A stretch of 64,000 bases of DNA from Trichomonas vaginalis G3. Its lineage: Eukaryota > Parabasalia > Trichomonadida > Trichomonadidae. The stretch lies in assembly GCF_026262505.1 (NCBI RefSeq), contig NC_067206.1:6538879-6602878 (forward strand). Direction: 5' to 3'. The position numbers and the translations under genes are program-made. Position 1 is the first letter of the stretch. The number at the start of each line of letters is the position of its first letter. Of this stretch, positions 23,787 through 42,303 are shown in pieces. The notes beneath the pieces were generated by a model, which was not told where the DNA came from, searched no databases, and worked only from the letters and a program-made list of their open reading frames with translations.

Positions 23787-24643
23787 ATGTATAGACAAAT
23801 ACCTTTATCTGTTGCGTTCAGTAGTGAAAACCCTGACGTCAAAATAAAGGGGAACAGAGTAACGTTTAAGTTTCCAACAGACTGGATTGTGAACATAAAT
23901 GAAGAGAAGTACATTGGCATAACATCTATGTATATAACACGTGCTTTCAGAAAGGTTGACTTTATACTTCAAGTCGAGATAGAAAATGACGAACAGTCTT
24001 TAAGCGCCCAAAACATTCACATATACAAATACTTTAAAGACGATACAACATTGTTGCAATGTATGATTTCATTTAATGAGATGTTCGAGAAAAAGTTCAA
24101 CATTGAAGTACAAACTTTACAGCCTTTACGTGAGTTTCTTGCACAACTGAAAGAAGAAGGTAGTCAGCCACAACTTATAGACTTTCATTATGAATTTAAT
24201 GAAAATGAAGATGGAACTCATGACTGTCAGTTTGTTATATATTCACCATTCAATGAAGTAGCTAAAAGAAAGAAAATCCATTACGTATAAGATTTCAAAT
24301 CTCTGAACCAAGTGATGATTTCAAGAATGTTTTCAATTATGATGCAATGCTTCCGAGGAAAAATGAATTTTCAAAGATTGTAACACCTGGCATTTGGGAT
24401 AGAAAGCAAGCTATATTATATTCAAACTTAAGTAAGGGAGTTGAAAATGAGTTCATTGGTCATACAAGAACTTCACCACTTCCTAACCCTAAATACTATA
24501 AATTAACTGGCTTCAATCGTGAGTTTTGGATAGACATGTTCTCCACTCATGACCATAACTGCCCAGTGTTCTTACCTCCAGACCATAAGGACTGTCTCTA
24601 CATTGAAGCACAACTCTTAAACTCTACCATCGCAGTATTGTAA
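23787..24643 (+). pseudogene. Penton-like minor capsid protein A, frameshifted
   Basis: Start MYRQIPLSVAFSSE after TTTTTATCCGAATTAA. Residues about 27-50 read VTFKFPTDWIVNINEEKYIG, the P-x2-W-x(7)-K-x-I motif shared with 3590 and 40048. Then LQCMISFNEMFEKKF. The frame breaks near 24275 in an A/G-rich run, and the C-terminal part continues to 24643 (YYKLTGFNREFWIDMFS, LYIEAQLLNSTIAVL). About 285 residues in total. A capsid vertex role is inferred from family pattern and from the neighbouring MCP candidate. Confidence 0.55.
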
Positions 24644-24693
24644 AATCTACGCTAGTTTTATTTTTTTCTGAAAATTTTATTTGAGTGAAAGGC

Positions 24694-25260
24694 ATGGAAG
24701 GTGAAGGACATTGGCAAACACTCGAACATGACAATGACTATGAAATCTTTTCAGAGTACCCTTATCCAATTAGACGTATAAGCAATAAAAGAGTTGTTAG
24801 TGAGTTTGACCAAGGAGATGGTTATATTTGTGTAAATTTAAACAAACACAAGCTGATGAAACATAGAATAGTTGCAGAAACTTTCATTCCGAACCCTGAA
24901 GGACTTCGTGAAGTAGACCATATAAACAGAGACAGAGGAGACTTTCATATCTCGAACTTAAGATGGACGACAAGAAGAGAAAACATGAGAAATATTTCTG
25001 GTTCAAATGGCTATTGGTTTGACATTGTTGACTCTCTTCCTGAAGACGCTGTTGAAATTATACAATACTCATATCACACGTTAGAGAACTACTACTATGT
25101 CCCAAGTGAAGATGCCTTTTACTATTTCATGGGAACTCAATACAGACGAATGAATGTCTTAAGACAGTATAACAAAGATTATATAAACATTACAGATGTA
25201 GAAGGAAGAAGAACAAAGCTGTCTATTGCAAAGTTTAAGAGAGACAATGGTTATACATAA
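24694..25260 (+). CDS. HNH homing-type endonuclease (NUMOD4-like plus HNH)
   Basis: 188 residues from the ATG at 24694 (MEGEGHWQTLEHDNDYEIFS). The N-terminal YEIFSEYPYPIRRISN is NUMOD4-like. GYICVNLNKHKLMKHRIVAE follows, then the catalytic HNH segment (REVDHINRDR, FHISNLRWTT, then N-rich). The C-terminal domain (NYYYVPSEDAFYYF, VEGRRTKLSIAKF) resembles the TIR-encoded 102-residue protein. HNH enzymes cut DNA and often home; here it may serve the element or be a passenger. The frame is intact, one of the few in this Maverick. Confidence 0.8.
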   Translation: MEGEGHWQTLEHDNDYEIFSEYPYPIRRISNKRVVSEFDQGDGYICVNLNKHKLMKHRIVAETFIPNPEGLREVDHINRDRGDFHISNLRWTTRRENMRNISGSNGYWFDIVDSLPEDAVEIIQYSYHTLENYYYVPSEDAFYYFMGTQYRRMNVLRQYNKDYINITDVEGRRTKLSIAKFKRDNGYT

Positions 25261-25283
25261 ATGACAAAAATATATGACCTCAT

Positions 25284-25308
25284 GGGCTTCGCCCTTGCCG
25301 CTAGCGGC
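25284..25308. repeat. GC-rich double hairpin between HNH and POLB genes
   Basis: GGGCTTCGCCC (25284-25294) and GCCGCTAGCGGC (25297-25308). It lies between the convergent HNH and polymerase genes, in a stretch that also repeats ATGACCTCA (25275, 25324, 25350). Possibly a shared terminator. Confidence 0.7.
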
Positions 25309-25354
25309 TTATTTTTATCACGAATGACCTCATTGCTGACAAAAATAAATGACC

Positions 25355-28300
25355 TCAGAACTTCAACTTACGAATAAAGCTTGTTTTAGTCGTTATTGAG
25401 AAGTTAAACTTTTCAGCAAAGCAAGGACTAGAAGACTTACATAAGTCGAATGCAATCTCTTGACCATCATGAAGTGCTTTGTAAAGTTTCATTAAATTGA
25501 ACTCAGAGTCTTTGTCATATGTTCCAACAGGTATGTGAATGTTCTTATCTTCATTGTAATAGCATTGTATAGCTTCAGGAAACATTTCATTTGCTGTTAA
25601 AGCAAGGACGTCTTGTTTGACACCTTTGCAACGTGCATGGAATGCAACTTCATTTAAATTGTTAGTGAGTAAGTCTATGTAGGTCTTCTTTCCACAAAAT
25701 ATTGACTTGTATGCTAAACTTTGTTTTCCAGGTGTTATTTCTGCGAAGTCAGAATGAAATTGACCAAGGTTCTTTCCTATAAGTTCGCGACCGTATCTCT
25801 TCTTAAACTCTGCTGCAAGCTTTGGTATGTCTTCATTGAAAATATGCATGCTATCGCAGTCCTGGTAAAATATTTGAAGTCCCATATCTTCAGCAGTAAG
25901 AATACTTCACACATTATTCTCTTCGACATAGACAGAAGTTAACACCAAGTGGACAGAAGTTAAAGTGTCTGCAAATGCTTTTCGTTAGCTTGAAAATAGT
26001 TTTATCTGAACCATCCAAACCTTCGAACTTCACTATATGGTTGTAGTTTCTGATGGCATATCTTATAGCATCTTTGTCATTTACTATGGTTATTTTTGAC
26101 TCAATAGGAGATAGAATAGTTTTGCCATAAATACTGTTCAGAATGAGCTTTATATTTTCTTGCAAAGGATTTCCTTCTTTCTTATACTTTAACCTTAACT
26201 CAAACAACTTCTTTACTTCATCTCTTATTCTAATATCTCTGTTTCCATCGTAATAGTATCCTTGCAACACTTCACATTTGACACCTTGATATTTATGAGG
26301 TCTTGTAATGTTATATGGTCAACATACATTAAACAGCAAGTGTTTGAACTTCTGGGAACGTTAAGTTCTGGATTTAGTTCAGGGTCACAAACTATTAAAG
26401 GAAAGTGTCTATGTATTCCAATCTCTGTTATCTTAATGAGAACAAAGAAGCCAGACATAAACTTTTCACCAATGGGTTCCTTTTGGTCGTCATCGAATAA
26501 ATGTCTCATGAGATACTCTGTGCTTAACATTTCTTTCTTCATAACCTTTGGAATACCTTCTAAAGTATAAAGTCTTGCTATAGCTGATGGATATAATGAA
26601 ACAGCGTCGAAATCAGCAATGAGTTTCTTTTCGCTCTTTTGTTTCATGTTATCTGACAGCATACATCTTCCACCTTGAATACAGCGTGAAATAAATTCTC
26701 TTGGTTTATTTGAGAGGTCATATAAATTTCCATTCGGGAAGTACACTCTGTTCTCAAACAATTTGTTAGCAATAGAACAAATACTAACGTAGTCATAAAC
26801 GTTTAAATCAAATTCTTTTAATATATCATTGCGGAACTTAACAAAACCTTCTCTTAAAATTCTTACATCTTGTTTGCAATAAAATGTGCTATACTTTTCT
26901 AAGTCGAAGTGGTTTTCATCTATTCTGCAACCTTTGATGGAATCTATGTTTTTCATGAACGTATCCGCATCCTGGATAAACTTACACGCTTCAGAAATGA
27001 CACCAGTTCTGTTGTCATTTGCTAATAAAGAGCTTGAATAATATTGATACGGAAATACTTCCTTTTCACCACACTGCAAATGAAACATTTCAGGAAATAG
27101 TTTAAGCTTCTTATTTATAACAGTGTATGAATCTTTAATAATGATTGCTTTACCTTTATATATTCCCGTTATCTGCATTGTTCGTGAACCTTTAATGATG
27201 GGAGTTCCTTTCACTTCTGTCATGTGTCTTAAGATGAAGTTTATATCATAACTGAGGTTATGGAAATATATTAAACTCTTGTCAGGAAGTCGTTCCAAAA
27301 ATTCTGTTGCACAGTTCTGACCCCAAATGCTTTCACTCACTGAACCATCTTCACTGTCATAACAATGTTAAAGCTTTATGAACCCATCAGTGCTACATTC
27401 AAAGTCAGCAAAGAAAACGTGCTCAGGAATGAACTTGCACTTATTTTTATTTACTTCTTTTGACTCGGCTTTCTTCTTCAGTTGTACACAATACTTTGGA
27501 GCATATGTCAAATCTTTAAATGGTGCAAGGTTCTGTTTATATAAGTCAGTCGTATATGTGAAAAGTTCTCCATAAGAAATAGGTTCGAAATATTTGCACT
27601 CCCACAATGTTTTCATAACATCCCATAGTGGTGTAGTTCTATCATTACGAACAATGTATTTACCATCTCTCATTGTATAAATCTTCATCTGTTTCTCAAT
27701 GTTCATTCCACCACAAGCTTTGAGAATTTCTTTATAGTTTCGAATGAAATATGTTGTCATTGGTAATCTTTCATTTAGCATGTAGTGGTCTTCAACAAGA
27801 AGTAAGTCAATAGTTCGAACAGTTTCACATTCTTTTGGTATGTATCTCTTTATTTCATTATGTCTTGAGTCATTGAAGTAACCAATGGTAACATTAAATG
27901 CTATACCTGTTGCGTCAGAAATTTCTTGTACTTTACTTTGAGGAAAGTCTCTAACACGAATGACTTCTCTCATGTGGTCAATAGTTTCTTCATTTACTCC
28001 AGCCTGAATGCAAGCATAAACGAAGCAGTTATCTTCTGTCATAAGTGTTGCAGTTCTTTTTTCAGTTCATTGAAGATTTGGTAGCGTTCAAGATTTATAG
28101 GTAATGTGCAAAGATACTTCCAGAACTGACCGCTTCTCTTCTTATAAAACTTCTTTTCACCATTATCTTTCCAAAAGCTTTCTATAAGTGCTGGGTTTCC
28201 TGTTTGCTTAAGAGCTTCCAAAATGGCTTTCTGGTCATTTGTCAGTGTGCTTTCATCTCTATATGGTCTCTTTTTTGGTTTGCCTTTCTTTACATCTGAC

Positions 28301-29125
28301 ATCGTTAAGCCTTCATATTCTGTTAAATCATACATCTTTATTTCAGTAAGATTCTTTATGTTTGTCAAGAAGAAGTCATAGTGCATTTCAACAATACCTG
28401 CAGCATTTGCTTCTATCTCTGATATAAAGTTCTCCTTCAAGAGCTGATGTAGTAATGTTCCAATATTATTGAGGTTTAACGTAGAACATTCATACTTTCC
28501 ACCAAGTTTATAACATACCATCCATCTTTGTTGGGAGTTTATTTTAATCTTCTCTAAGAGTCTCATGAAAACCTTACCGAAATGTTTGTGTAAGTAGTCT
28601 CTGTTTGGTTCATCTAAAGCTTCGATGTTAAAGTCAATGAGTCTATTGCCTGTCTTAACATTCCTCTTCCTATTCTCTTCATCTTTCTTTAACCATCTCT
28701 CACCTTCTTTTGGTTTGTCGTCAATGGAACGAAGGACATCGTTAGCTTTGCGAACTTGTTCTATAGCGCTCTTAAACATATCTCTTCTCTGTTGTTTCAG
28801 TGTGTCGTCTCTTCTTCTTGTTTCACCAACGTTTGCATTTGTTATGTCAAACATTTCTCTTCTTACTTCATGAGGTACTGAACGTCTATGATATAAGTCA
28901 ATAGCAACGTCATTTAAAGGAAATGCTCTTGCATGGACTTCGTCCTCGCCGCGTTGCGGCTTTATGAACTCATGAATTCTATCATAACTTATTGCACCAT
29001 TATAGTCTAATGAAGTCAGCGAGTGCTTTTTTGTTTGTTGCGTAATGTTTTGCTACTTCTATGTTAGCTTCTGTAAGAAGTTGTTTTATTTCCGAGTGTT
29101 CTAACTTAGACAACTTCCGATACAT
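25355..29125 (-). pseudogene. Protein-primed DNA polymerase B (pPolB), multiple frameshifts
   Basis: About 1250 residues. Start ATG 29125 (MYRKLSKLEHSEIKQLL) after TTTTTTTATTTCCTACTAAAG. Frame breaks lie near 28990, 28040, 27360, 26250 and 25900. Motifs in order: exonuclease I FADFECSTDG, exonuclease II YFHNLSYDINFIL, exonuclease III YCKQDVRIL, polymerase motif A DFDAVSLYPSAI, motif B KLILNSIYGK and motif C YQDCDSMHI (Cys replaces the usual Thr). This enzyme replicates Polintons from a terminal protein primer. A GC-rich double hairpin lies in frame near the N-terminus (28935-28960). The catalytic residues are kept, but the coding frame is destroyed. Confidence 0.85.
28935..28960. repeat. GC-rich double hairpin inside POLB N-terminal coding sequence
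   Basis: GGACTTCGTCC (28935-28945) and GCCGCGTTGCGGC (28948-28960). On the coding strand it reads in frame as KPQRGEDEVHA, close to PQSGEGEARENA in the protein at 40929. Confidence 0.7.
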
Positions 29126-29215
29126 CTTTAGTAGGAAATAAAAAAATATTTTTTGAAAAAATTAGATTAGATTTTTTTAAGTTATTTTTCAAAATAATTT
29201 AATATTTTTATTTTA

Positions 29216-29687
29216 ATGAAACACATGCAAGATTGCAAGTTCTTTTCATACAATGCTCTCGCTACTGCCATCAAGAATGAGTTCAATAATGCTTCAAATG
29301 TTAATGTTATCTTTAACAAGAAGTTTTGAAAGAATCTAAGTTTGTCAGTATGTCAGACCATTAGCTATCGTCATTGACCGCAAAAGTTATACTTCACAAG
29401 AGTTAGCAGTAGTTTTGAAACAAAAGGGTTTCTTCGTGAATGTCAAAGATACACACTATACTGTTATAAAGAACTCCAACATTGACTTCTTCAGTATTGC
29501 TATGAATCTTTCCGAACAGAAAGAATATAAGAAGGGTGAAACATCTGTGAAATATTATCCTTCATCTCTGAAGACAATAACGAACAAAGATGTTATACAT
29601 AAGCTCCTACCAAAGGTTGAAGAAGCTTCTATTGACATTGACGAAGGAAGTGAAATGGTTGAAGAAATTGACCCTGAAGCTTTATAA
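29216..29687 (+). pseudogene. Small Maverick protein, frameshifted
   Basis: ATG 29216 follows ATTTTTATTTTA. The N-terminal part reads MKHMQDCKFFSYNALATAIK and then breaks near 29325; the frame from about 29350 continues (LAIVIDRKSYTSQELAVVLK) and ends acidic (IDIDEGSEMVEEIDPEAL). The intact product would be about 155 residues. It is divergent from POLB with about 90 bp between the starts. I recognise no family. Confidence 0.4.
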
Positions 29688-30035
29688 GAAAATTTATTTT
29701 TGAATAACTGATGGTGACACCACGTCACCATGTGTCACCAGGTTAATTAACTTCTTTTAAAATTACTGACAACATGACATTTTGATAACAGTCCTGGAAA
29801 CAAATGTTTACGTTAATGTTTTCACGAATGTTTTCAGTTGTGATGGAATATATCTAACCCTCCCGTTAACTAATAAACTTGACGATCAGACGATTCTCTC
29901 TTCGTCGATTATGATCGACATGGAGCGTTTATGGAAACAATTAAATGGTAAAAACAAAATAATGACGAAGGGTTTTGTTTTTTATCGTGGTTTTCTCCAC
30001 TATGGTCCTAACGTGGCACCAGACGAGATTTTTTT
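29688..30035. other. Region between convergent genes with GTCACC repeats
   Basis: It contains GGTGACACCACGTCACC (29713-29729, 6-bp arms) followed by another GTCACC at 29734. It lies between the end of the 29216 gene and the end of the KilA-N gene (30036), so a termination or processing role is possible. A plus-strand open stretch at 29782-30138 has no convincing start and overlaps the KilA-N end. Confidence 0.4.
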
Positions 30036-30863
30036 TCATTCTTCCTCTTTGAAGTTATCGAAATATTCTGTTATTTTTTCCTTCAGTAATGTTAAGTCTT
30101 CTTTGAATGTAAGTATTGTGCAACCTTTGATGTCATAGTGTGTTTGAGGAAGAGTATTTTTGACAATTTCCTTTATTTGCTCATTCGGAGTCATTGAAAT
30201 CGGTAAGTTTTCACGATAGAACCAGTTTCTGTCAGATTTATATATCTTAGCTAAGTTATAAAAGCTCTTGTTGTTTCTTCTGACTAAATGTAACATAACC
30301 ATATCTTTATCTTCTTCTTTCTCCAACTTTTCAGTATATATCATATACTTATAACTCTTTTCCTTTCCTTTTGGTACTGAACGCGGTATTCTTTTCTGTA
30401 TGCTTTTGTCTTTGGATTCAATGACTTCATCTTTTGCATGAAGTTTCTTTTCCATCTCTCCACGTTCTGCTTTATATAGTTCATCTAACATCATGAAAAT
30501 ATAACAAGCATAACGAGGTGAAGCCCACATTGCTACAGCGTTTACTAAAAGTCTATGAACATAATAACCTTTCAAACCAGGAGCCAAATTCTTGCGATTT
30601 TCGAATGGAATCTCTTCTCTCGGTTTTCCGAGGGAAGCAATCATATGAGGAAATTCTTCTAAAAGTTCTTTTGTCTGTTGGTTTTCAAACCAATGATATG
30701 CTTGCTTTGTAGAACAAAGAGCATTCATTATACTTTGCATTTGGTACATATCGTCTTTGACTGAACGAATGAGACGTAACTGTTTGTTATACTGTATGTA
30801 TTCATATTCTTCATTTATGACTTCATGAACGATAGCAGTTGTTGTGTTCTCTGATGTTGACAT
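30036..30863 (-). CDS. KilA-N domain protein
   Basis: 275 residues from the ATG at 30863 (MSTSENTTTAIVHEV). The upstream in-frame extension would need a TTG start. The KilA-N domain lies at about residues 35-130: TKQAYHWFENQQTKELL, then GLKGYYVHRLLVNAVAMWAS, then YACYIFMMLDELY. The C-terminal half (YKYMIYTEKLE, then NNKSFYNLAKIYKSD) is of the accessory type found after KilA-N in large DNA viruses. KilA-N proteins bind DNA. The leader TTTTTATTTTGTATGTAAAGACAGTA is nearly the same as in the next gene (31563), indicating a duplicated promoter. The frame is intact. Confidence 0.75.
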   Translation of the reverse strand: MSTSENTTTAIVHEVINEEYEYIQYNKQLRLIRSVKDDMYQMQSIMNALCSTKQAYHWFENQQTKELLEEFPHMIASLGKPREEIPFENRKNLAPGLKGYYVHRLLVNAVAMWASPRYACYIFMMLDELYKAERGEMEKKLHAKDEVIESKDKSIQKRIPRSVPKGKEKSYKYMIYTEKLEKEEDKDMVMLHLVRRNNKSFYNLAKIYKSDRNWFYRENLPISMTPNEQIKEIVKNTLPQTHYDIKGCTILTFKEDLTLLKEKITEYFDNFKEEE

Positions 30864-30950
30864 TACTGTCTTTACATACAAAATAAAAATTTTTGTTAGA
30901 AAAAATTAGCGTTATTTTCTGACTTTCACAAAAGACCAAAAATAAACGCT

Positions 30951-31563
30951 TTACATGTATTTTTCAGCAACTTCGTCAAATAATTTTATAGCTTTATCTA
31001 TCTCATCTACTTCAAACGTTTCTTTACCTTTTATGGGAGCACCATACATTTTCTCAAACTTTTCAAGTAGTTCTGTTTCAGCAGCTCTCATATCATTAAC
31101 GAACACAACCTTGACTCTATTGACTGTAGAGTCATATCTTTGAGTTATATTATATGTTTCTTCCTATCTTATATCTCTTTGTATTGAAGTCCTTCGGTTT
31201 CTGAACGATGTAAAGTAAGCCTTCACTGCAACGTTCCATATCGAATGAGCCATAAGTTATGAAGTTATATCCAACAACCGGGTCAATCCATAGAAGAATT
31301 ATTGGTATAAGACTTTTGTCAATGAGATATGCTATAGTTCCATAGAATCTTACTGATATCATAAGCTCGGGATTTCTTGCCAAAATTTTCTGAGTAGAAG
31401 CAATTCTAACCCAGTCCTTTGTTATCTTTCCAGATGGTGTTATAATGTCTGACAAAGAATATTTGTTGTATTTCTTACAGTATCTTACGTTTAAATCACC
31501 AATTCTAACCACTTTGGTGTCATTGTCAATCTTTCTAACTGTTTCAAACTCAATGTTTGACAT
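30951..31563 (-). pseudogene. KilA-N-like protein, C-terminal frameshift
   Basis: ATG 31563 (MSNIEFETVRKID), after TTTTTTATCTTGTATGTAAAGACAGTA. The N-terminal domain resembles KilA-N: NVRYCKKYNKYSLSDIITPSG, WVRIASTQKILA, then YGTIAYLIDKSLIPIILLWID. The frame breaks near 31160, and the C-terminal part (VKVVFVNDMRAAETELLEKF, DEIDKAIKLFDEVAEKYM) ends at 30951. The intact product would be about 203 residues. It is paralogous in layout to the 30036-30863 gene. Likely a DNA-binding regulator. Confidence 0.55.
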
Positions 31564-31629
31564 TACTGTCTTTACATACAAGATAAAAAAATAAATAAAA
31601 ATAAAACTAACTTTATTTTTATCTTTTAT

Positions 31630-32811
31630 GAAAATTCATGAAATTTGGTCATTTTTCAGCAAAAATAATTTTTAGGTGAAGAGGTGAGATTTCACATGTT
31701 TTTTCACCTGTTTTTTCACAAGCGTTTTACATGAATTGTACGATGTATATTTGAAATCCTAAACAATTTCGTAGCTTCTATTTCTTCTTTTAGTACATTG
31801 AATGTTTTAATCATGCCGAAAGTCTCTTTATATTTCTTCTTGACGTCAGACAGAAGGAAATCTTCTGCTGTTGGATAGTTTTTATTAAGAAATGTCAACA
31901 TATCCATTTTATCTTCTGCTGGCTTTTCTGCTTCTTTTTTAAGTCTGCATAGTCGTTTCGCATTCTTTCTATCTCTTTGACTGAGTAGTTATATTTCCTC
32001 ATTACTGCTTTACATTTAGAACATTGCGGATTCATTTTTGCGTTATACACCGAAATAAAACCAGCTAGAACAACTAATGCGTCAATTGCTCTCTTTAACT
32101 CAAACATAGCGGGTCTTATTTGTTCGTTCCATACGTTGCCTCTTCTATCTTCATCTCTTATCTGCCATACACATTTTGCAACTAATGTAACAAAGTTATC
32201 GTATGTCTTAAACTCCCCAGATTTATATATGTCAGAGATGTTCTTATAAACCATATCGCAATCTTTGTCCATAACTTTATGGTTGCAATGAAAACCAAGG
32301 AATTCATAATTTACTTTACGTATGAATTTCTTAATTTCTACTGAGTCAGTTGCTTTGACTTCTATTTCATCGAATTCATGAATAGTGAGCTTTTGTTGTT
32401 GGATTTCAGGCAATTTGGGTAAATGGTCAATAATGTCCTGCATGTCATAAAGATATTCTTCATTTGTTTCATCTTTCGCACTACAGTCTAAATTACTTGT
32501 TAAAAGTTCTTGCTTTATCTTCTGGATTTCTGTTTCGAAAGTATATGAAGAAGGAATAAAGCTTTTCATCTCTACCAACATTGACTTAGGATTCATGACT
32601 AACGAGTTTGGTGCTGTAGTTGTGCCGATTGTTGAAATCATATCTTTTATACAAAATAAAAAAATAAATAAAAATAAAACTAACTTTATTTTTTCTATCT
32701 TAAGGAAATTCATGAAATTCACGAGGGTGAAAAAACAGGTGAAAAAGAGTGAGATCTCACCTCTTCACCTAAAAATTATTTTGGTGAAAAATGCAAATTT
32801 CATGAATTTTC
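31630..32811. repeat. Gene cassette bounded by ~85-90 bp inverted repeats
   Basis: The left arm (31630-31719) and right arm (32727-32811) are near-perfect reverse complements. Both contain TCATGAAATTTG, then AAAATAATTTTTAGGTGAAG, then AGGTGAGAT and CACCTGTTTTTTCAC. Between them lies a single gene (31716-32641) whose stop codon is inside the left arm. A related sequence occurs at the inner part of both Maverick TIRs (about 20600-20645 and 41690-41745). Confidence 0.65.
31716..32641 (-). pseudogene. Unknown protein in the inverted-repeat cassette, frameshifted
   Basis: ATG 32641 (MISTIGTTTAPNSLV) with leader TTTTTATTTTGTATAAAAGAT. An in-frame hydrophobic extension to 32722 is AT-rich leader sequence. 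About 310 residues: helical, charged, with LVVLAGFISVYNAKMNPQCS near residue 215 and a C-x2-C pair. The frame breaks near 31915, after which MLTFLNKNYPTAEDF continues to IHRTIHVKRL at 31716. No recognised family. Confidence 0.5.
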
Positions 32812-32929
32812 TTATTCTTTCTGGCATATTTTTGTCTTTCAGTACTCCCGCTCTAATGGTCCCAGATGTGTTGGCTTCGACTCTCTCAAGTTCTTAGATG
32901 TATAACATCTTCAACGCCTCCTTCATATC

Positions 32930-33871
32930 TTACTTTATAGTGTCATCGTTTATGTTATAGCCAAGTATTTCAATAACCACTCCTCGCTTTGCTTCGTCAG
33001 TGGTTTCAGCAAGTTTGCCATTACTACTTTCGACTAATTTATGACGAGGATAAAATGCTATGGAGTCGTCGGCAGCTTTTATAAGATATCCATTACCTTG
33101 CGTAGAGTCTACGATATAATAATTTCGACTAACCTTAAACGTTCTTTGTCAACGGTTTGTCGTCAAGAACTACACGAACTTTTGTACCAGAATGAGGGTA
33201 AATTGTGTTGAATTTCTGATATTTTGTGTTTGGCTTCGTTTCTTTTGTATATACTTTTCTTCTTGTTGTTGTGTCATTGAATTTGGTGTATGTCCTGTTG
33301 TAGAATGTGTTTGAGGAATTATATACTTCGAGAAAATGTTTCATTGTTTCTTCGTAAGTCTCGCTCTTGGTTTAAATCTCTGAGCGTTCTTATGAAGCGG
33401 TTTATGATCCAGTATGTTATGGTTATGGTCTTCAGTAGTGTAGTGAGTTATGCTATGCTTAATGAGAAAATCTGTGATTTCATTGCTGAGGTATGCACGT
33501 CTTGGCTGATGTTAAAGTACTTGGGCTATGTTCTGCTACAACTTTTGTAAAACTCTTAACACTTCACGAGTTCCTTTATTCCTCATTGGATATGCATATG
33601 CTTTGCGAGTGTTAACATTAATGAAGATGAGGAATGGTTTATGTCCTCCTTTTCTGCTTTGAATGAGAGTGTCAAATTGGTATGCGTCAGGAGTGTTGGA
33701 GTAAATTGGTAAAAAGTAGTCGTAAGGGTTTATTTTTGTTTGATGTACAACATTTTTGTCAAAGAACTTTTTAACTTCAGCTCTGTTAGTAAATCCCCAA
33801 CTTTTTGCTGCTTCATTGAACTTCTTAAATGACCTCCACGGTGATGATTCGAATACTTCTTTCAAGCTCAT
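32930..33871 (-). pseudogene. Maverick 2 retroviral-type integrase, multiple frameshifts
   Basis: Start MSLKEVFESSPWRSFKKF (33871). The core has PDAYQFDTLIQS (first Asp) and FLIFINVNTRKAYAYPM. After about 33540 frames change several times: FLSNEITDFLIKHSITHY, then INRFIRTLRDLNQ, where Asn stands at the position expected for the catalytic Glu (usually I-E-R-F). The C-terminal SH3-like part reads GTKVRVVLDD, then YYIVDSTQGNGYLIKAADD, then FYPRHKLVE, ending at 32930. It would integrate the element. At least three frame lesions. Confidence 0.75.
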
Positions 33872-33908
33872 TTATGTAAAAAATAAATTTAGTAATTTCA
33901 TGTTGTTC

Positions 33909-33937
33909 GCTCTTTTGGAGCTCAGGACTTTCAGTCC
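33909..33937. repeat. Double hairpin after the fibre gene
   Basis: GCTCTTTTGGAGC (33909-33921) and GGACTTTCAGTCC (33925-33937). The second arm runs into the fibre stop region (stop at 33931). It could terminate transcription. Confidence 0.55.
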
Positions 33938-36900
33938 GTTCTAACCCATGCATAAACCGTCATATAAGGTGGCATGTAATCTTCACCCGAACCTGTTGGA
34001 TTTGTTGTAAATGTATGTGAATGATTTCCTCCTGGTTCAGTTGGTCGAAAAGTCTTTTTTGCTGAATTGTTATAAGATGGAGATAAAACATCATGACTGG
34101 CTTCATAGTCTGAGTTGTATAATGGGTGGTCTCTTAATGAGTGGCTATGGTCGCCAGAAAAGTTTGTCGTTCCTGTATGAGTGTGCGCAGGTAAGTTTGC
34201 TTCTTTAATTTTCTTTGAGCCTCCTGTTTGCTTTGAAGAGTTAGCACAGTATAAGAATTTGTCTACAATCTGCTGCCATGTACCAAAACCCAGAACTGTT
34301 GCTGGATTTGTTGAGTTCATTGATGTATATAAAGAACCAACAGGATATAATGTTTGAAGTATTTCAGTCTTTAATGTTTGAAGTTCATGTTTAACATTTA
34401 TAAATCCATCGCCATCTACAATATTTATATTGTTTGTTATTAAACCATTAGGAAAAGTAGGAGGATAAATATTTTGTTCAACTAAAGGTGTACCGTCTCT
34501 TCCTGTTTTTGTTACTTCTTCAATGTATGCATTAATTTCTTTAATCCTGATTGTTTGAAATTCTTCATGCACGTGCTTTTTATCAGCTTTTCCATTAACC
34601 GCATCATTTACTTCCGACTTCTTTGCATAATTTTCATCTACATAAGTTTTGTCGGCTTTCTTATCATATAAATCTTGAGCAGTGAATTTAACATTATTTT
34701 CATCATCCATGACATAAACATTTTACAGCTAATTTCTTTCTTCGTTGTTATGTTTTCATTCGATGTTAAACCTTGTGGAAAGTTAGGAGGTTTATAATAT
34801 AATGCATCCCACCAGTTCCGCCAACCGTTCCTTCAATACTTTCTATAGCAACAGTTGAGAAGGAGTTATGTGTATGTTCTTTATCTGCTTTCTTATCTAA
34901 CATTGCTGGTAGTTCATATGTTTCAAAGTTTCTGACATGACCTTCGATATTTATACATTTGTTATTTAAGGAGTTTAGTGTATCTTTTACGCTTGTACTT
35001 GGATTCTCTAAAGGTGCACTTGAACCAAGGGTATAGTTCAATATTATGTCGTCTGCTCTAACAGTAGTGAAGGATTTATGTGTATGGTTCTTGTCAGCTT
35101 TACTATTTAATGTAGCTTGAAGTGAATTTATATCGGAGATATTGTGTTTATGAGATTTCAAAACTTTGTTCGTTGCGTCAAGTTCATCTTTGTCAGCTTT
35201 ACTTTTAATAGCATCTTCAAAAGTTATTTTTGCCTTAACTCTCAAAGTAAATCTTGGTTCAACTAATACACCGTTAACAGAGAAACTAGAAGCATAAATT
35301 TCATCGTTATAACCAAATGCTTCTTGTGCTTTACCTGTGTCATACTGTACAGTACAGCTTATGTCATAACCTTTAGCACGAATGAATTTATATCTTCTTT
35401 CATTAACATCTTCAGTGCTTATTTGTTCATCCTGTGTTAAATATCCGTGGTAGTCCGTTATAATTTGTTCGTCTGAACTTATATAATGAACATGGTTTTT
35501 ATCTGCTTTTTCGGCTAATTTCTCTTCTATCTCATTTATTTCAAGTTCATGCCTACCACCACCTCCCGAAGAAGTATTTTTCTTCAGCTCTTGAAGAACG
35601 TCCACTTCGCCATCTTTGGTGTCAATAATGAGACTTTGAGTTAAAACCTTTCCTGTCTTAATGGATGTTTGTAAAACTTCTTCTTCACCGTGTTCGGGGT
35701 CATGGTCGTCATCATATCTTGCGAAATCAGAGATGTTGTCATACATTAAGCATATCTGTCTCAAAAGTTCTGCTATTTGAAACTGGAACGAAAGATATAC
35801 AGAACTTTCATCATCTCCTAAAGTCAAGTCTGCTTTCTTAAGTATTTCTTGAATGTATGCAATGAGAACAGAGTACCTTGGAAAATATTCGAACAATATT
35901 TCATTAGCTGTTGGTTTTGGTGGTTCTTCTGGATTTCTGTTGTTTCAGTTCCTTCTGTAGGTTCTGTTGGAGTTTCTGCATCTCTTGATTTCAATGCTCT
36001 TGCTCTCAAAGACCTAAATGTTAGAGCACCAGGTTTTACAAAGGACTTTATAAATGCTTTAATAGTTCCTGGTAAGTTATTGTTAGCATTAAGTAAGTTC
36101 CTTATGCTTCCATCATGTACGTCCATAGCACTATGTAAAAAATCTATACTTTTCTTGTAGTCAGCAATAGACTGACTGTGATTTTTTAAAGATTTGTCAA
36201 TACCTTTAAGCCAATCTTCATGCATGTCTGATACTGAGCCAAGAATATCATTTGCTTCCTTTAGTGTATTTTGTGCTTCTCGTAAAGTATCCAATCCCGT
36301 ACGTGCATTGTTTGCTATACGTCTTACAATATCTATTTGACTCCTTGTTTCTTGCATCCAACCAGATAAAATTTTAATAGTATCCGAACCATTTGAAATG
36401 AAGTTCAAAGCATTTTTAACGTCATCTAAAACTTCTTCACCAAGTACCGCCCATATCTTTCCGATTTGGTATTGAAGAACTCCATATGAAGCAGCTGTTA
36501 AACCAGTATTTATAAGGTTCCATATCCATGATTTAGCAGTTTTTCCATCCTTTCCATCTTCACCATCCAAACCGTTTTCGCCTTGAGGTCCTTGTATTCC
36601 TTGTATTCCTTGTATTCCTTGTATTCCTTGTGGTCTTGAGGTCCAGTGTCACCCTTCTCTCCTTTCAGTTCATCTTTATGTTCGTTATAATATTCTAATG
36701 TCATAAGGTGTACATCATTACTGCTACCAGCAACGCCGAGAATTTGTTTCTCATTCATGACTAAATTCTTTAGGCATTTAATGTTGTCGTCAAATCGAAA
36801 GCTCTTTAGTAATTCAATGAGAACATTCAGTACTTTCACTAATGAGGCATCTACTGTTGAATTTATATATTGCACCATTCCATCATTTATGATGGGAACC

Positions 36901-37079
36901 TTGCTTGTTGTAATGAATGGGTCATAAGTGTTAAAAGTATCGAAATCAATGACTTTTTTAGTTTTTCCATCGTCAATGACTAAATCATTGCCTTCAATGG
37001 TTAAAGTTGAGTTTTCGTTTACTAGTTCATGTGCTCTTCTTGCTTCATTTGTTTCATACGCATATGCAGCAATAGTCAT
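33931..37079 (-). pseudogene. Giant fibre: collagen-like stalk, KADK/HTH shaft, phage tail-collar tip
   Basis: About 1040 residues with frame breaks near 36600, 35890 and 34770. The N-terminus (MTIAAYAYETNEARRAHELV) has an anchor domain to about 140. Then a collagen-like G-x-Q stalk (KGEKGDTGPQ, then repeated GIQ, then GENGLDGEDGKDG). A hydrophobic/coiled-coil region (about 185-390) follows. Then come repeated K-A-D-K and H-x-H shaft modules, including SSAPLENPSTSVKDTL. The tip has PVGSLYTSMNST, FGTWQQIVDKFLY, LPAHTHTG, NHSHTF and MPPYMTVYAWVR, typical of phage tail-collar domains. It resembles the Maverick 1 fibre. A role as a virion attachment fibre is inferred. Confidence 0.75.
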
Positions 37080-37096
37080 ATTTTAATGAGAATAAA
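37080..37096. promoter_or_regulatory. 17-bp bidirectional promoter between fibre and 37097 gene
   Basis: ATTTTAATGAGAATAAA fills the gap between the ATGs at 37079 (minus) and 37097 (plus). Symmetric A/T ends as at 3572-3589, where a fibre gene is also divergent from a virion gene. Confidence 0.55.
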
Positions 37097-37858
37097 ATGT
37101 TGTTCTATTTGCAAAGTACAGACCCAAACGAATACGGAATAGTAAAACTACAAACAAACTTAGGTCTTCAGAATGAAGCGCTTGCTTTCAGAGTTGTTGA
37201 CTTCAATACTATCGCAACTTTTGTCATAACAGATGAAACAGATTTCATAGAGATTGAAATAGATGACAAAAGAAGTTTATAACATTTCCTAACAGAGCTG
37301 GTATAGAATAGATAAATTGCTGGAGTCATAGATACTCTCATAAATGAAGAAACTATTGACAACATAGATGTCGAACTCTCTTCTGAGGGAACATTGAAGT
37401 TCAGCAGCGAGAAAGAGTTTAAGATACCAAGAATGAGTCATAGAGTTCAATTGCTTCTGGGTGCATACCATATGACATTTCCTTTGAAAAGTGTTGACAA
37501 AACGATTGAGATGAAATCTGTTCCATACGTATGTTATGGCAATTGTTTGTACGTTGAGTCAAAAATAGCTAATGTCACAGGTATTTCAGGAGTTAATAGT
37601 AAAGGTTCAGTAGAATATAAATCCTTCTGTTATGCAGTCAATTCAATGTTCATTCCAAACGTTCCTGTCATAGCAACTCATTTAGGTAAATGGGTTTGCA
37701 TTAGTCCTCATAATTTGAAAGACATGCAATTCAGACTTGTTGACTTTCAAGGAGAGCCTGTAGAACTGAAGGCACCAGTGCGAATGACTGTTGAAGTTGA
37801 CTTTTTAGAAAATATTAAATGCAACAGCTTACAAGAGAACTCAGAGCTAAAAATATAA
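37097..37858 (+). pseudogene. Virion-type beta-rich protein, interrupted
   Basis: MLFYLQSTDPNEYGIVKLQ starts at 37097 and runs to a stop near 37282. After several stops the frame resumes near 37310 (GVIDTLINEETIDNIDVELS) and continues to 37858. The C-terminal part (MQFRLVDFQGEPVELKAPVR, then VEVDF) has the strand pattern of jelly-roll capsid or penton proteins. It is divergent from the fibre gene and overlaps the next gene at 37819. About 250 residues intact. Which virion protein it is cannot be told. Confidence 0.4.
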
Positions 37859-38061
37859 AGTATGAATGTTATGTATTAGGTCATGAACTTTGGTTGTTGC
37901 TGTTTGATGAAACAAATGAGTTAGTTATGTCAGTCAAGAGAACAGAAAAATATTGTGTTAGTGAAAACTGCACCAAGTCAATAAGATTAGGTTTGCATTA
38001 TGAAGATGAGTTCGATACTGTTGAAGAAGTTTTGGATAGATATTACAAATTGCTAACTTGA
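37819..38061 (+). CDS. 80-residue Maverick protein
   Basis: Starts MQQLTRELRAKNIKYECYV at 37819, overlapping the end of the previous gene by 40 nt. A TTTTTAGAAAATATTAA leader is embedded in that coding sequence, so the promoter lies in the upstream gene. It contains three cysteines and an acidic C-terminus (YEDEFDTVEEVLDRYY). Intact. Function unknown. Confidence 0.55.
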   Translation: MQQLTRELRAKNIKYECYVLGHELWLLLFDETNELVMSVKRTEKYCVSENCTKSIRLGLHYEDEFDTVEEVLDRYYKLLT

Positions 38062-38076
38062 AATTTTTTGACTGAC

Positions 38077-38101
38077 GGCGCAAAGCGCCAAGACGAGGGT
38101 C
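38077..38101. repeat. GC-rich hairpin, partial double-hairpin member
   Basis: GGCGCAAAGCGCC (38077-38089) is a perfect 5-bp stem with an AAA loop. The second arm (GACGAGGGTC, 38092-38101) has only 3 bp. Between the convergent genes at 37819 and 38111. Confidence 0.5.
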
Positions 38102-38110
38102 CTGACTGCT

Positions 38111-38724
38111 TTAATTTACTAAAACATATTTCAAACAAAGCTTATATTCTGTTGAAAATTTTGTATACTCGTTTGAATATTTATACTTAAACTCAACTCC
38201 TGGAGTACCTGGTGTTTCAATGATGCGGATGTTACCTATTTTCATGAATAGTGGAGTTTGACCACAGCATTCGATTTCAGGGTCGAGATAGTCAATGACA
38301 CATTGTTTCCCCTGTTATTCGTGATATAACATTTTCAAGGTCCTCCTTTGTTAGAATTATTTGGTTCTTACTAATAAGATTTGTCAAAAGCTTCTTATCG
38401 TCTTTGAGTAAAATGTTTGGTATAACTGAAGAGGTAATGGTCTACGTTATCTGAAGGATTTGTTTGAACATTTGTGTAAGGGTTGTCGTTGGCTTCTCTT
38501 GAAAGAACTTGGTCCAGTGGTGGATACTCTAACTTAACATCTGATGTAGCGTTAGCGTTTGAAGCTGCGTTTAAATTCACCGACTTAAGATCTGGTTCTT
38601 TTTCTTTCAACACTCCGAACTATAGTTCTTTATGACAATATTGTTTGTCGTTCGTGAGTCAGTACATTTGATGTTGGTTCATTGGAACATTAACGGCACC
38701 AGCTAAGATGGATTTGCTTCTCAT
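38111..38724 (-). pseudogene. Unknown Maverick protein, several frameshifts
   Basis: ATG 38724 (MRSKSILAGAVNVPM), after TTTTATTCTATATGAA. At least three frame changes follow. Recognisable segments are SRTTNNIVIKNYSSE, then KEKEPDLKSVNLNAASNAN, YPPLDQVLSREANDN, then LLKDDKKLLTNLISKNQII and the C-terminal TPLFMKIGNIRIIETPGTPG, ending KYVLVN with a stop at 38111. About 205 residues when intact. Divergent from the gene at 38758. No family recognised. Confidence 0.4.
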
Positions 38725-38757
38725 TTCATATAGAATAAAACCTTTTATGTGTATGAA

Positions 38758-39150
38758 ATGAACAATATACTCGACAAGGGTTTGAATGTAAAGCTAACGA
38801 ATGAAAATATTGTTGAATTCACTGAGACAGGTGCTGTGTATAAAGATGTAGAACTACTGAACAAAAGAGCTAAGGGAAGAAGCAGGAACATGAACAAAGG
38901 GTGGAAGCCTATAAAAATTTATGTCAATGATGGCTCAGGAGGTTTCAAACATAAAGTATGCAGAAAGTTATAGAGTTTATGCTCTCAAGGTGAAAAGCCT
39001 TCATTTAAGAACAGCTATTCTAACGCATATCCTCAAAAGCTAACGGATGGGGAAGTGGATGATATGAATGACAGCAAAAATATTAACAGAAATGGCGACA
39101 GAGATGCATGGAATTTGTTTACCATCAGTCAATTGAAGGTTAAATTTTAA
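38758..39150 (+). pseudogene. Unknown Maverick protein with in-frame TAG
   Basis: ATG 38758 (MNNILDKGLNVKLT). The frame is open except for one TAG at 38971-38973 between KVCRKL and SLCSQGEKPSFKN; the same frame continues to a TAA at 39148 (TISQLKVKF). About 130 residues. The in-frame stop could be a point mutation. Positively charged middle (KRAKGRSRNMNKGWKP). Function unknown. Confidence 0.4.
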
Positions 39151-39213
39151 AACAATGTTGGTCGTTCCCATGGAATATTTTTGACTTTAATGGTATTAGT
39201 CATGATATGAATC

Positions 39214-40031
39214 TCAAGGTATGAACGAGGAGAGATGAGACTTATATGCTTCCCAAATTTCTTCAAAAGGTAATGTTATACCTGACTGTTTCCAAATGAG
39301 TTCAATATCATAGCGTGAGAAACCTTGAAAGATAACGAAGTCAGTTATGAGACGTTTTATGTTTAAAGCTAAAACCTCCATGTTTGCATAAGTATTGCTA
39401 CAGTTAAGTGGTAATGTCTGACTTTAGTAATGATGTTAGCTAATGGTGAGTCAGGCTTTGAAACTAAACCTTTTCCGGCGAAGTCGTCGCATACGAGCAG
39501 AGTGTTTGAAGGATACTTTTTGAAGGGGTATTTTGAAAGTTTTGATAGAATGTAGTTTGTCAGTCGTTTCATATCGTAAACTCCTGAGTACTGACGTAAG
39601 TGGTGTTTGTCAATAATTCTTTCCATCTCCTCAGAAGTCTTTTGCATTCCTGACTGTATAAATTCAACGATGGCATAATATTTCCTCTTACGTCGAATGT
39701 AACGTTGAAGAAATTCAATGAGTTCACTGTCTGGAACTTTAACGACAGAGGCTTGAACTTTTGACATGAATGTTTTCGCTGTTGAGTCCATAGAGTCTGA
39801 AGTTGCTGATATAATGATTTGGTCATAATAAGAGTCGTTTCCTAAACGCTCTGTTATGAGTATATGACGAATTAAATTAAATGTCTTACCTGAACCCATC
39901 TTTCCACAATAGAAATAAACACCATTTGAACAGAATTCATAGTCCTTACTGAAAGGAAGAATGAGAGAACTGTTGAGCTTTTCACTGCTTTCATTCATGT
40001 CTTCATCTACGTCATGTATTAAATGCTTCAT
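39214..40031 (-). pseudogene. Packaging ATPase (FtsK/HerA, A32-like), one frameshift
   Basis: ATG 40031 (MKHLIHDVDEDMNESS). The Walker A motif is GKMGSGKT near residue 45, and Walker B is TLLVCDDFAG near residue 180. VRHYHLTVAILMQTWRF follows, then the frame breaks near 39372 and continues (RLITDFVIFQGFSRYDIELI) to a stop at 39214. About 270 residues, the usual size for Polinton genome-packaging ATPases, which pump DNA into capsids. Divergent from the penton-like gene at 40048 through a 16-bp promoter. Confidence 0.8.
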
Positions 40032-40047
40032 TTTATCTCCATTAAAA
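40032..40047. promoter_or_regulatory. 16-bp bidirectional promoter between ATPase and penton-like B
   Basis: TTTATCTCCATTAAAA fills the gap between the ATGs at 40031 (minus) and 40048 (plus). Same symmetric layout as the other three pairs. Confidence 0.55.
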
Positions 40048-40928
40048 ATGCAAGTCAGAAATATTCAGAACATAGCACCGAGTCTAACTGACAAGAGTAT
40101 AAAGATATACTATGAACATGTTATGATGAAACAACCAAAATTCAAGAAAGTCAGTATACTTATGAATATCCAAGACACTGGGTAGAGTATGTAGGAGGTG
40201 AGAAAGCTATTGAAATCAGACAGGTTCGAAGTATTCCAGCAGGAAGAACAATATTATTGAAGAACTTTAATGTTTTGAGGTATAATGATGAAACAAAGAA
40301 GCAAGATAGTTTTCCTGTTGCTGTGTATGTGAACCTAGACACAGGAGATGACATGAAAGTTTTTAACACAAAGCTTCAAACGGTAGTGAGAGAACAACTG
40401 ACTGCGGAAGGGCATCCATTACCTTCAGAAGTTACCATAGCATATAATTTTGAAACAAACTCAATATATTTTAAAGTCGTCTCTGCAAAGAAGTCAAGAT
40501 TTACATTTAATGAAGCAGATGTCTATTCGAATGAAAACTTCAAAGCTATTGCATGGTTAGATAATGACGATTGCTTTAAGAAAATCTTTAAATTCAGTGA
40601 CTCAAAGATGTCAATAGATGACTTTCGTGGAATGTTACCATCGACGTTTACAGTAGAAGGTTCAGCAGGATTGCTTACAAGATTGTCAATTGGTGGTATT
40701 TGGTCTCGTGAGAACATTGTTATAAAATCCAGTATAAGTGAATTTGCTGAAGAATCTATATTATGTCTTTCAAACTATATGTATTCGCCGCCAAAGCATT
40801 ATAGTATAACAAACTTTGTCAGTAAGTTTAACATAAGACTTGTCGAACCTTCTTCAATGAAAGATGTTGTGCTACCTAAAGATGGAAAGGATGGACTCAT
40901 TATTGAGATGATTTTAATAGCATATTAA
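40048..40928 (+). pseudogene. Penton-like minor capsid protein B, one frameshift
   Basis: Start MQVRNIQNIAPSLTDKSI (40048). A frame break near 40175 precedes YEYPRHWVEYVGGEKAIEIR, the P-x2-W-x(6-7)-K-x-I-x-[RI] motif shared with the proteins at 3590 and 23787. The rest is open to 40928 and beta-rich (FTVEGSAGLLTRLSIGG, LVEPSSMKDVVLPKDG). About 290 residues. The stop TAA abuts the ATG of the next gene with no gap. Paralogous to penton-like A. Confidence 0.55.
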
Positions 40929-41153
40929 ATGAGCTTGTTCTTGAAGGTCATTCATGATGAAATAACTGTTGTAGAAGATGTTAGCAATTGTTCAGACATT
41001 TTGAAGCGTATAGATGAGATAAGAAAGAAGTTAGATAGACCGCAAAGCGGTGAGGGCGAAGCCCGTGAGAACGCTTATGTTTCATTGACTTTCTCCAGTA
41101 ACGAGAACTTTTATGAGATAATATTGAAGAGAGATGATTTTAATATGGTGTAA
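40929..41153 (+). CDS. 74-residue Maverick protein carrying an in-frame palindrome
   Basis: ATG directly follows the previous stop. GATTTTAATAGCATATTAA at the end of the upstream coding region supplies a promoter-like motif. MSLFLKVIHDEITVVEDVSN, then a helix, then the palindrome-encoded segment PQSGEGEARENA (double hairpin 41040-41064), then SLTFSSNENFYEIILKRDD. Intact. Its stop abuts the next ATG at 41154. Function unknown. Confidence 0.6.
   Translation: MSLFLKVIHDEITVVEDVSNCSDILKRIDEIRKKLDRPQSGEGEARENAYVSLTFSSNENFYEIILKRDDFNMV
41040..41064. repeat. GC-rich double hairpin inside coding sequence
   Basis: CCGCAAAGCGG (41040-41050) and GGGCGAAGCCC (41054-41064), each a 4-bp stem with a 3-nt loop. 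In frame within the 74-residue protein. Confidence 0.7.
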
Positions 41154-41681
41154 ATGGTAGCTTGGGCAGCTTTAGGCGCAATGGGAACAAAAGCATTAGC
41201 ATTTGGAGCAAAAGCACTTGGAGCTTATGACGCAGTAAATAAAATGAGTGGAGGAAGGGTTTCGAAGACATTAGATGCAAATAAAGGAAAGATTGGAGGC
41301 TGGGTTGCAAAGAAGTTAAGATTAAATAAAATAGGGCTCATAAATAAAGCATCCAATTTGGTTGCGACTGAGTCAGAAAATGCTTTAGGAAAGGACGATG
41401 AGTTTGCAAAACACGCAAAAGACTTTAATGACCAGATGAAAGGTGAAACAATGCATTTAAATAGAGTCGATGGAACTAAAGAAAATGTTTCTTCTCCACC
41501 AGCGGTTTATCCATACAGACCTTATGGAATGTATGGAAACCCTTACGAAAGACCATTTGACCCATTGACTGGTGGAAGTAATTGGTATCATTATGGACGA
41601 AGAAGAAAGACAGTCAAGTTGGAGACAGACGTGAAGAAAGCAACTAAAAAGAAACCAAGGAAGAGAGTTATAAAGCAATGA
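41154..41681 (+). CDS. 175-residue basic virion-type protein
   Basis: The N-terminus is Gly/Ala-rich and hydrophobic (WAALGAMGTKALAFGAKALG). The middle is helical, then Pro/Tyr-rich (PAVYPYRPYGMYGNPYERP), and the C-terminus is very basic (KKATKKKPRKRVIKQ). The layout suggests a core or minor capsid protein with DNA contact. The ATG follows the previous stop directly, with GATTTTAATATGGTGTAA as a promoter-like leader. The last codons and the stop come from the right TIR, read in a different frame from the left-side gene. Confidence 0.6.
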   Translation: MVAWAALGAMGTKALAFGAKALGAYDAVNKMSGGRVSKTLDANKGKIGGWVAKKLRLNKIGLINKASNLVATESENALGKDDEFAKHAKDFNDQMKGETMHLNRVDGTKENVSSPPAVYPYRPYGMYGNPYERPFDPLTGGSNWYHYGRRRKTVKLETDVKKATKKKPRKRVIKQ

Positions 41682-42297
41682 ATTCAACAGGGTGAAAAAC
41701 CGGGTGAAAAAAGAGGTGAGTTTTCACCACTTCACCTAAATTTATTTTTGTGCTATGTTTTCATACGTGTGAGGGTGGTGATATCATTAATTTTTAAGTT
41801 TATTTTTTATTTTATTTTTATATAAATGACGAAAACTATTGAGATAACAAACTACAACGGTCATGAGTTCAAGAATTTGTTCTTCGTTCCTCGTGAAAAT
41901 ACATTCTATCAGATACGAGGGAGAAAGGGTAAAGTTAGTTTGAGCGTTTATGAAGGAATGAAGAATGGAAAGTTTATACAAGCATACGATACAAACGGTA
42001 AACGTGTTTCATTAGCTTTGTCAAAACTTACTAACATTTATTTTGACAGTGACTTTGACTCTGACGATTGGAGCGACAGCAGCGATACTGAAGAATATGA
42101 AGTATTGTGTGAAGCACAGCAATGGGAGGAGTAGCATACTTTTGTAAGTGAGAACGTTTATTTTTACAGTAGTGAAGTCGTTTGTGAAAACGTTAGTGAA
42201 GTCGTTTATGTGTCAGACGGTTTTGTAAAGTGTCAAATTCACATATAATGGGTAAGGAGGCGCGCAGTGCCTCAGTACACATTATATGTATACTAAC
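41657..42297 (-). repeat. Maverick 2 right terminal inverted repeat
   Basis: About 641 bp matching the reverse complement of 19980-20677, containing the second copy of the 102-residue ORF. It lacks about 60 bp present near the left tip and has GGAGGCGCGCAGTGCCTC in place of the perfect left hairpin. Confidence 0.85.
41826..42134 (+). CDS. TIR-encoded 102-residue protein (right copy)
   Basis: Same protein as 20202-20510, inside the right TIR and pointing outward. Intact, with the TTTTTATATAA leader. Complete identity of the two copies, while internal genes are broken, suggests gene conversion between the ends or recent homogenisation. Confidence 0.75.
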   Translation: MTKTIEITNYNGHEFKNLFFVPRENTFYQIRGRKGKVSLSVYEGMKNGKFIQAYDTNGKRVSLALSKLTNIYFDSDFDSDDWSDSSDTEEYEVLCEAQQWEE

Positions 42298-42303
42298 TAA
42301 AAC
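42298..42303 (+). repeat. 6-bp target-site duplication of Maverick 2 (right copy)
   Basis: TAAAAC directly after the right tip GTATACTAAC, identical to 19974-19979. Confidence 0.75.

What the first reader, a model, noticed from the sequence alone, without database searches (positions are those of the whole stretch)
33931..37079. Virus-like fibre with collagen stalk and phage tail-collar tip in a eukaryotic Maverick
The sequence shows one gene combining an N-terminal anchor, a collagen-like G-I-Q stalk, coiled coils, K-A-D-K/H-x-H shaft modules and a tip with PVGSLYTSMNST, LPAHTHTG and MPPYMTVYAW. The tip pattern belongs to phage tail-collar/receptor-binding proteins. In a Polinton it suggests a virion attachment fibre, meaning a virus that leaves the cell. 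The promoter and divergent partner gene layout matches that in Maverick 1.
Basis: partly seen in the sequence, partly recalled or inferred. Interest (0 to 1): 0.82.

Follow-up and report, generated by a model that had tools for sequence, protein, structure and literature searches.

The report
Maverick virion fibre with phage tip
A virus-like element embedded in a trichomonad genome carries a broken copy of a gene for a capsid spike whose far end is the same kind of docking tip that bacterial viruses use, and across the copies compared a short stretch of the tip appears to have been swapped.

Summary
It belongs to a 22.3-kb Maverick (19980-42298; 5-bp target-site duplication; inverted-repeat core 479/480 identical). 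The genome is Trichomonas vaginalis (inferred). Copies with open frames of 1,039-1,114 aa were read; they carry anchor, collagen, phage-tail repeats and a Gp10_C tip (window tip E 5.9e-29; T4 gp10 E 6e-6).

(2) The anchor is at least 99% identical in the 150 copies listed, whereas listed tips fall to 66%. (3) The tip has three H-x-H boxes, as in two phage relatives; the ~40-residue loop between boxes 2 and 3 falls into three types among 108 tips, one framework carries two loop types, and one copy is a clear mosaic. (4) Tips look constrained (dN/dS 0.25-0.30).

This supports a virion attachment fibre. Particles are not shown, and published RNA-seq finds very few Maverick genes expressed. Collagen-repeat fibres in these elements were reported in 2025; I did not find penton pairing or loop exchange in print.

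The parts
19980..42298 (.). Whole Maverick element, 22,319 bp, flanked by a 5-bp target-site duplication (AAAAC)
   Evidence: Inverted-repeat arms; duplication found by script
20134..20613 (.). Left terminal inverted repeat core, partner 41723-42202
   Evidence: 1 mismatch in 480
41723..42202 (.). Right terminal inverted repeat core
36510..37079 (-). Fibre piece 1: N-terminal anchor (about 148 aa) up to the start of the collagen stretch
   Evidence: 98.6% to the L031 copy over 148 aa
36538..36627 (-). Collagen-like G-x-y stretch, 10 triplets, in the frame of piece 2 and overlapping piece 1
35824..36570 (-). Fibre piece 2: shaft with weak, below-cut-off DUF7217 and tape-measure-like matches, probably coiled coil
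34766..35896 (-). Fibre piece 3: phage-tail-repeat (PTR) shaft modules
   Evidence: PF12789 E 1.7e-16, 2 stretches
33931..34710 (-). Fibre piece 4: last repeat-like modules, neck and tip
33937..34362 (-). Gp10_C tip domain
   Evidence: PF21939 at residues 117-258 of piece 4, E 5.9e-29
34024..34140 (-). Variable loop between H-x-H boxes 2 and 3 (residues 191-229 of piece 4)
37080..37096 (.). 17-bp divergent gap between fibre and partner start codons
   Evidence: same in L031-L033
37097..37855 (+). Divergent partner gene with predicted penton (minor capsid) fold; open frame interrupted in this copy
   Evidence: tblastn 82% over 258 aa; model and fold searches of the homologue P0121
33361..33871 (-). 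rve integrase remains, directly downstream of the fibre
   Evidence: tblastn with the L032 copy; rve E 8.7e-11 in that copy
39150..40031 (-). Packaging ATPase, A32-like, open frame interrupted in this copy
   Evidence: tblastn 83%; Pox_A32 3.2e-7 in the L032 copy
21441..23022 (-). Major capsid protein candidate in two frames (21441-22574, 22543-23022)
   Evidence: Open homologue L038, 524 aa; the 378-aa piece is at least 99% identical in the 109 copies listed; no Pfam or relevant PDB match, so the MCP identity is inferred from size, position and appearance
25917..27367 (-). Family B DNA polymerase remains in two of several frames
   Evidence: DNA_pol_B_2 1.9e-30 and 1.5e-9
2125..3571 (-). Second fibre, short class, in the left Maverick, in three frames; PTR and Gp10_C
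   Evidence: PF21939 4.2e-26, PF12789 5.4e-26

Best explanation
The locus is a decayed copy of the vertex fibre gene of an endogenous Maverick/Polinton virus lineage of T. vaginalis. In open copies the protein is probably a trimer: the near-invariant N-terminal anchor binds the penton, encoded by the divergent neighbour 17 bp away; a collagen triple helix, coiled coil and phage-type repeats form the shaft; and a Gp10_C tip of phage type, with H-x-H boxes that probably bind metal and an exchangeable loop, binds a receptor. Shown here: gene content and order, family membership of tip and shaft repeats, a penton fold prediction of moderate confidence, anchor conservation in listed copies, tip diversity with loop types on shared frameworks, and dN/dS below 1. 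Inferred: trimerisation, metal binding, anchor-penton contact, receptor binding, and that virions form.
Against: No particle, expression or binding evidence of my own; published RNA-seq shows 25 of 38,656 TE ORFs expressed, though 507 of 4,808 Maverick blocks had some RNA-seq coverage (PMC7845603). The partner model has moderate confidence (pLDDT 68.5, pTM 0.51), TM-scores near 0.3 and large rmsd. The tip model failed (pLDDT 46). Tip synonymous divergence is not clearly above that of the neighbouring integrase (means 0.165 and 0.116 over 300 pairs; tip higher in 27 of 42 pairs), so the tip is not shown to evolve specially fast. The partner of the left element's short fibre shows no profile match to the penton family. 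A metagenome relative of anchor and stalk (P0170) has no Gp10_C match. The stretch of T4 gp10 printed shows no H-x-H box, so the box layout is that of other phage relatives, not of T4 gp10.
Confidence: 0.78

Rival explanations
1. The fibre is a relic: the elements now move only as transposons inside the genome and the virion genes, fibre included, are decaying passengers.
For: The window copy is in four frames; 49 of the 150 listed anchor copies have an open frame of 900 aa or more and 101 do not; 25 of 38,656 TE ORFs were expressed in culture (PMC7845603).
Against: dN/dS 0.25-0.30 in tips and 0.045 in the MCP candidate (78 pairs of 13 elements chosen partly for similar MCP); anchor at least 99% identical in the 150 copies listed; discrete loop types on shared frameworks.
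Confidence: 0.17
2. The fibre was taken over as a parasite adhesin displayed on T. vaginalis or its vesicles.
For: Collagen-like and phage-tip domains are adhesin-like; NCBIfam matches bacterial collagen-like adhesins over the collagen stretch only, far below cut-off.
Against: I saw no signal peptide or membrane segment by eye in the open copies read (no predictor was run). The partner gene is beside the fibre in 3 of 3 copies read that far, and an integrase match follows in 29 of 30, so the gene stays within the element.
Confidence: 0.05

Closest known systems
Collagen-PTR fibres of T. vaginalis polinton-like viruses (PMC12220804, passages read)
   Same: Same kind of element: 20 T. vaginalis PLVs with one collagen-like domain fused to up to seven PTR domains; the authors propose bacteriophage-like fibres used for entry
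   Different: The main text has no 'Gp10' or 'Gp12'; in the passages seen I found no penton partner of this gene and no loop exchange; supplements were not read
T4 gp10 and gp37 baseplate and tail-fibre domains
   Same: Gp10_C family match; in gp37 iron-binding His929 and His931 lie beside essential tip residues (PMC6957217, passages), which resembles the boxes and loop here
   Different: Carried by a tailless element of a eukaryote on a collagen/PTR stalk; the gp37 likeness is by analogy and was not tested by structure
Virophage tail fibres (OLV18/19, PMC3671162, passages; DSLV2, PMC12724248, abstract and section list)
   Same: Phage-like fibres in small DNA viruses of protists; OLV19 is noted as having regions similar to T. 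vaginalis
   Different: DSLV2 has a three-protein heterotrimer that binds cyanobacterial LPS; here one protein, receptor unknown
Adenovirus penton base and fibre (recalled)
   Same: Penton-fold protein paired with a fibre that has a conserved anchor
   Different: No adenovirus knob was matched; the tip is of phage type

Membership tests
Pfam Gp10_C (PF21939) | Score above the curated cut-off over the full model | tested here: met
   102.2 bits against 27, model 1-139 of 139
Pfam PTR (PF12789) | Score above the curated cut-off | tested here: met
   60.4 bits against 27
Pfam Collagen (PF01391) | Score above the curated cut-off | tested here: inconclusive
   25.6 bits against 27.2 in L031, 24.4 in L033; precomputed as present in 12 of 15 relatives of at least 800 aa
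Phage tail collar (PF07484, number recalled) | Pfam Collar domain match | tested here: not met
   The only Pfam family listed for the tip piece at E<=0.1 is Gp10_C
Maverick/Polinton | TIRs and short target-site duplication | tested here: met
Maverick/Polinton | rve integrase, family B polymerase, packaging ATPase | tested here: met
   integrase and ATPase families were scored on the L032 copy, to which the window remains match
Maverick/Polinton | Double jelly-roll MCP | tested here: inconclusive
Penton (minor capsid) of jelly-roll viruses | Penton fold | tested here: met
   Fold searches of a model of moderate confidence; no sequence-level match
Virion attachment fibre | Presence on particles and receptor binding | not testable with these tools
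   Needs purified particles and a binding assay

The most novel reading that the evidence does not exclude
T. vaginalis Mavericks form a population of capsid viruses that diversify host recognition as T-even phages do (comparison recalled): by exchanging a receptor-binding loop between conserved H-x-H boxes of a phage-derived tip on an otherwise fixed, penton-anchored fibre. This implies past or present extracellular spread between trichomonads, possibly by hitchhiking on bacteria they eat, as proposed for a virophage (PMC12724248).
Probability: 0.42. Interest if true: 0.8.

Novelty: new variant of a known kind. Interest (0 to 1): 0.6.

Why it matters
Mavericks make up about a third of the T. 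vaginalis genome (PMC10120064, passages), and whether they are only transposons or are viruses has been debated. A fibre that pairs with a penton-like gene, keeps a near-invariant capsid anchor and exchanges a tip loop is the kind of trace that selection for attachment to cells would leave. It gives concrete markers (fibre, penton, loop type) for looking for particles and for asking what they bind, and it shows a phage docking module in a eukaryotic jelly-roll virus lineage.

Tried and rejected
Tip as a Collar-family member: not listed; the match is Gp10_C. Structure of the tip: monomer model pLDDT 46, so I ran no fold search with it. Tip as a specially fast island: I first saw mean tip dS 0.278 against MCP dS 0.015, but those elements were chosen partly because their MCP was on the best-match list. 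In elements chosen by fibre, tip and integrase dS are alike (0.183 and 0.178, 12 pairs), and over 300 pairs they are 0.165 and 0.116, with the tip more than three times the integrase in 48 pairs and the reverse in 6. I dropped the claim of tip-specific speed; MCP stays lower (tip dS above MCP dS in 63 of 63 pairs). In one search the all-pairs block is wrong (window piece misplaced); one search replaces it. MCP was found in 6 of the 10 downstream windows fetched; the other 4 were dropped. In one search, 25 of 30 loci gave usable integrase codons. In one search tips were found in 114 of 153 sequences and three boxes in 108 of 114; the rest were dropped, and clusters are single-linkage at thresholds I chose. 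In one search I set the segment borders at the H-x-H boxes myself. Copies lacking the tip: the ~780-aa frames looked tip-less, but in 3 of 3 read the tip follows out of frame; P0150 and P0158 are listed without Gp10_C, P0150 being cut off in mid-shaft, P0158 not examined. Relatives in IMG/VR and GTDB genomes: none confirmed, though these scans need short conserved words. DUF4106, named as the MCP in PMC10120064: one representative has no match in the window, and its ORF did not look like a jelly roll to me (by eye). Left element's partner as a penton relative: no match. PDB sequence search with the partner profile: nothing relevant. In one search one further MCP place, 9.6 kb upstream of a fibre, was not counted. 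Not-in-print statements rest only, an open-licence library; supplements were not read.

Full report
WHAT IS THERE. The fibre region 33931-37079 is on the minus strand and lies in four open pieces in different frames. Aligned with an open genomic copy of 1114 aa (L031), the pieces run in order at 91-99% identity. The tip piece matches Pfam Gp10_C over the whole model (E 5.9e-29), the third piece matches phage-tail repeats (PTR, 1.7e-16), and the second has weak, below-cut-off matches. PHROG tail families match the tip (best 3.4e-17), and T4 baseplate protein gp10 matches in the PDB (6.1e-6). The window frame keeps 10 G-x-y triplets and L031 has 12.

THE ELEMENT. Inverted-repeat arms and a 5-bp duplication place the element at 19980-42298; its inverted-repeat core has 1 mismatch in 480. 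It carries remains of polymerase B, rve integrase and A32-like ATPase and a two-frame remnant of a 524-aa protein (L038) that is probably the major capsid protein but has no Pfam or relevant PDB match. The lengths of contigs C1-C5 equal those given for T. vaginalis G3 proteins; C6 differs by about 15 kb. The window is therefore almost certainly T. vaginalis. Of 30 tip loci, 29 have an integrase match just downstream on the same strand.

CONSERVED ANCHOR, VARIABLE TIP. The first 148 aa of the fibre are at least 99% identical in the 150 copies listed, of 1141 candidates. The tip list falls from 100 to 66% (147 scored of 5916 candidates), while the MCP piece stays at 99% or more in the 109 copies listed of 4109 candidates. 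All three lists are best-first and capped, but only the tip list falls. Among the 150 anchor copies, 49 have open frames of 900 aa or more. Five anchor copies, three picked for frames near 780 aa and two for long frames, were read to the end: the two long ones carry the tip in frame, and in the other three it follows out of frame.

LOOP EXCHANGE. The tip has three H-x-H boxes, invariant or at least 90% conserved in 61 aligned proteins, and the stretch between boxes 2 and 3 is the most variable (block entropy up to 1.6 bits). The two phage relatives that I fetched, from a Dorea phage and a Chlorobiaceae phage, have the same three boxes with a loop in the same place; the T4 gp10 stretch printed does not. 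In T4 gp37, His929 and His931 bind iron and tip residues beside them are essential (PMC6957217, passages), which is why I read the loop as the receptor-binding part; that is analogy, not test. Among 108 tips the loop falls into three types (70, 32, 6). One framework carries two loop types (70 and 31 tips); the second type also sits on a different framework, in one copy, L080. Copy L081 is a plain mosaic: its three segments are 0.88, 0.45 and 0.80 identical to the window copy and 0.59, 0.90 and 0.64 to L080. I set the segment borders at the boxes; in the printed alignment the changes of likeness fall at or next to boxes 2 and 3. Mosaicism reaches beyond the loop: against L003 the window copy has neck dS 0.000 but tip dS 0.379, and 7 pairs show a near-identical neck with a diverged tip.

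SELECTION. Tip dN/dS is 0.30 over 78 pairs and 0.25 over 300 pairs, so tips look constrained; the neck is 0.85 and 0.67. The pairs are not independent and some copies may be dead. Against my first idea, the tip is not clearly faster than its neighbour once elements are chosen without regard to MCP: tip and integrase dS are 0.183 and 0.178 in 12 pairs, 0.165 and 0.116 in 300 pairs, and the tip is higher in 27 of 42 pairs. MCP dS is lower (63 of 63 pairs). So the evidence for diversification is exchange of segments, not a raised mutation rate.

WHAT IS KNOWN. Collagen-PTR fibres in 20 T. vaginalis PLVs were reported in 2025 with an entry role proposed (PMC12220804, passages). An MCP for T. vaginalis Mavericks was reported in 2023 (PMC10120064, passages). 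A virophage tail that binds cyanobacterial LPS was reported in 2025 (PMC12724248, abstract and section list). Databases already name many of these proteins as tail-repeat or baseplate proteins. I found no mention of the penton partner of this gene or of loop exchange in the searches listed, of which I opened eight papers in part.

AGAINST. RNA-seq in culture found 25 of 38,656 annotated TE ORFs expressed, although 507 of 4,808 Maverick blocks had RNA-seq coverage (PMC7845603, passages). I know of no particle. The tip could not be modelled. A metagenome relative shares anchor, collagen and the following stretch but has no Gp10_C match (P0170); whether that record is complete I do not know.

VERDICT. 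A real, well-supported virion-type fibre of an endogenous virus lineage, dead in this copy. The kind is known; the penton pairing and the loop exchange make it a new variant worth a direct search for particles.

Noticed in passing
window 19980-42298: The inverted repeats are nearly identical (479/480) yet polymerase, fibre, penton and other genes are broken into several frames; either the element was copied when already dead, or the assembly has small indel errors.
   Followed up: partly
L077-L079: Copies with open frames of about 780 aa break by small indels at the same place in the shaft; the tip follows out of frame.
   Followed up: partly
window 1-6130: A second Maverick, cut by the window edge, carries a short fibre class and a 282-aa divergent partner (in open copies) with a Pfam DUF7777 match that does not match the penton family.
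   Followed up: partly
L034 811-4191: A DUF4106 protein, the family named as MCP in PMC10120064, looks coiled-coil and proline/glutamine rich by eye and has no match in this window; the 524-aa ORF in L038 looks a better MCP candidate.
   Followed up: partly
P0123-P0142: Partner (penton) relatives, most of them at 41-67% identity, exist in metagenome-type records of unknown host, hinting at related elements in other protists.
   Followed up: no
window 12056-14734: An 893-aa WD40-repeat ORF, probably a host gene.
   Followed up: no
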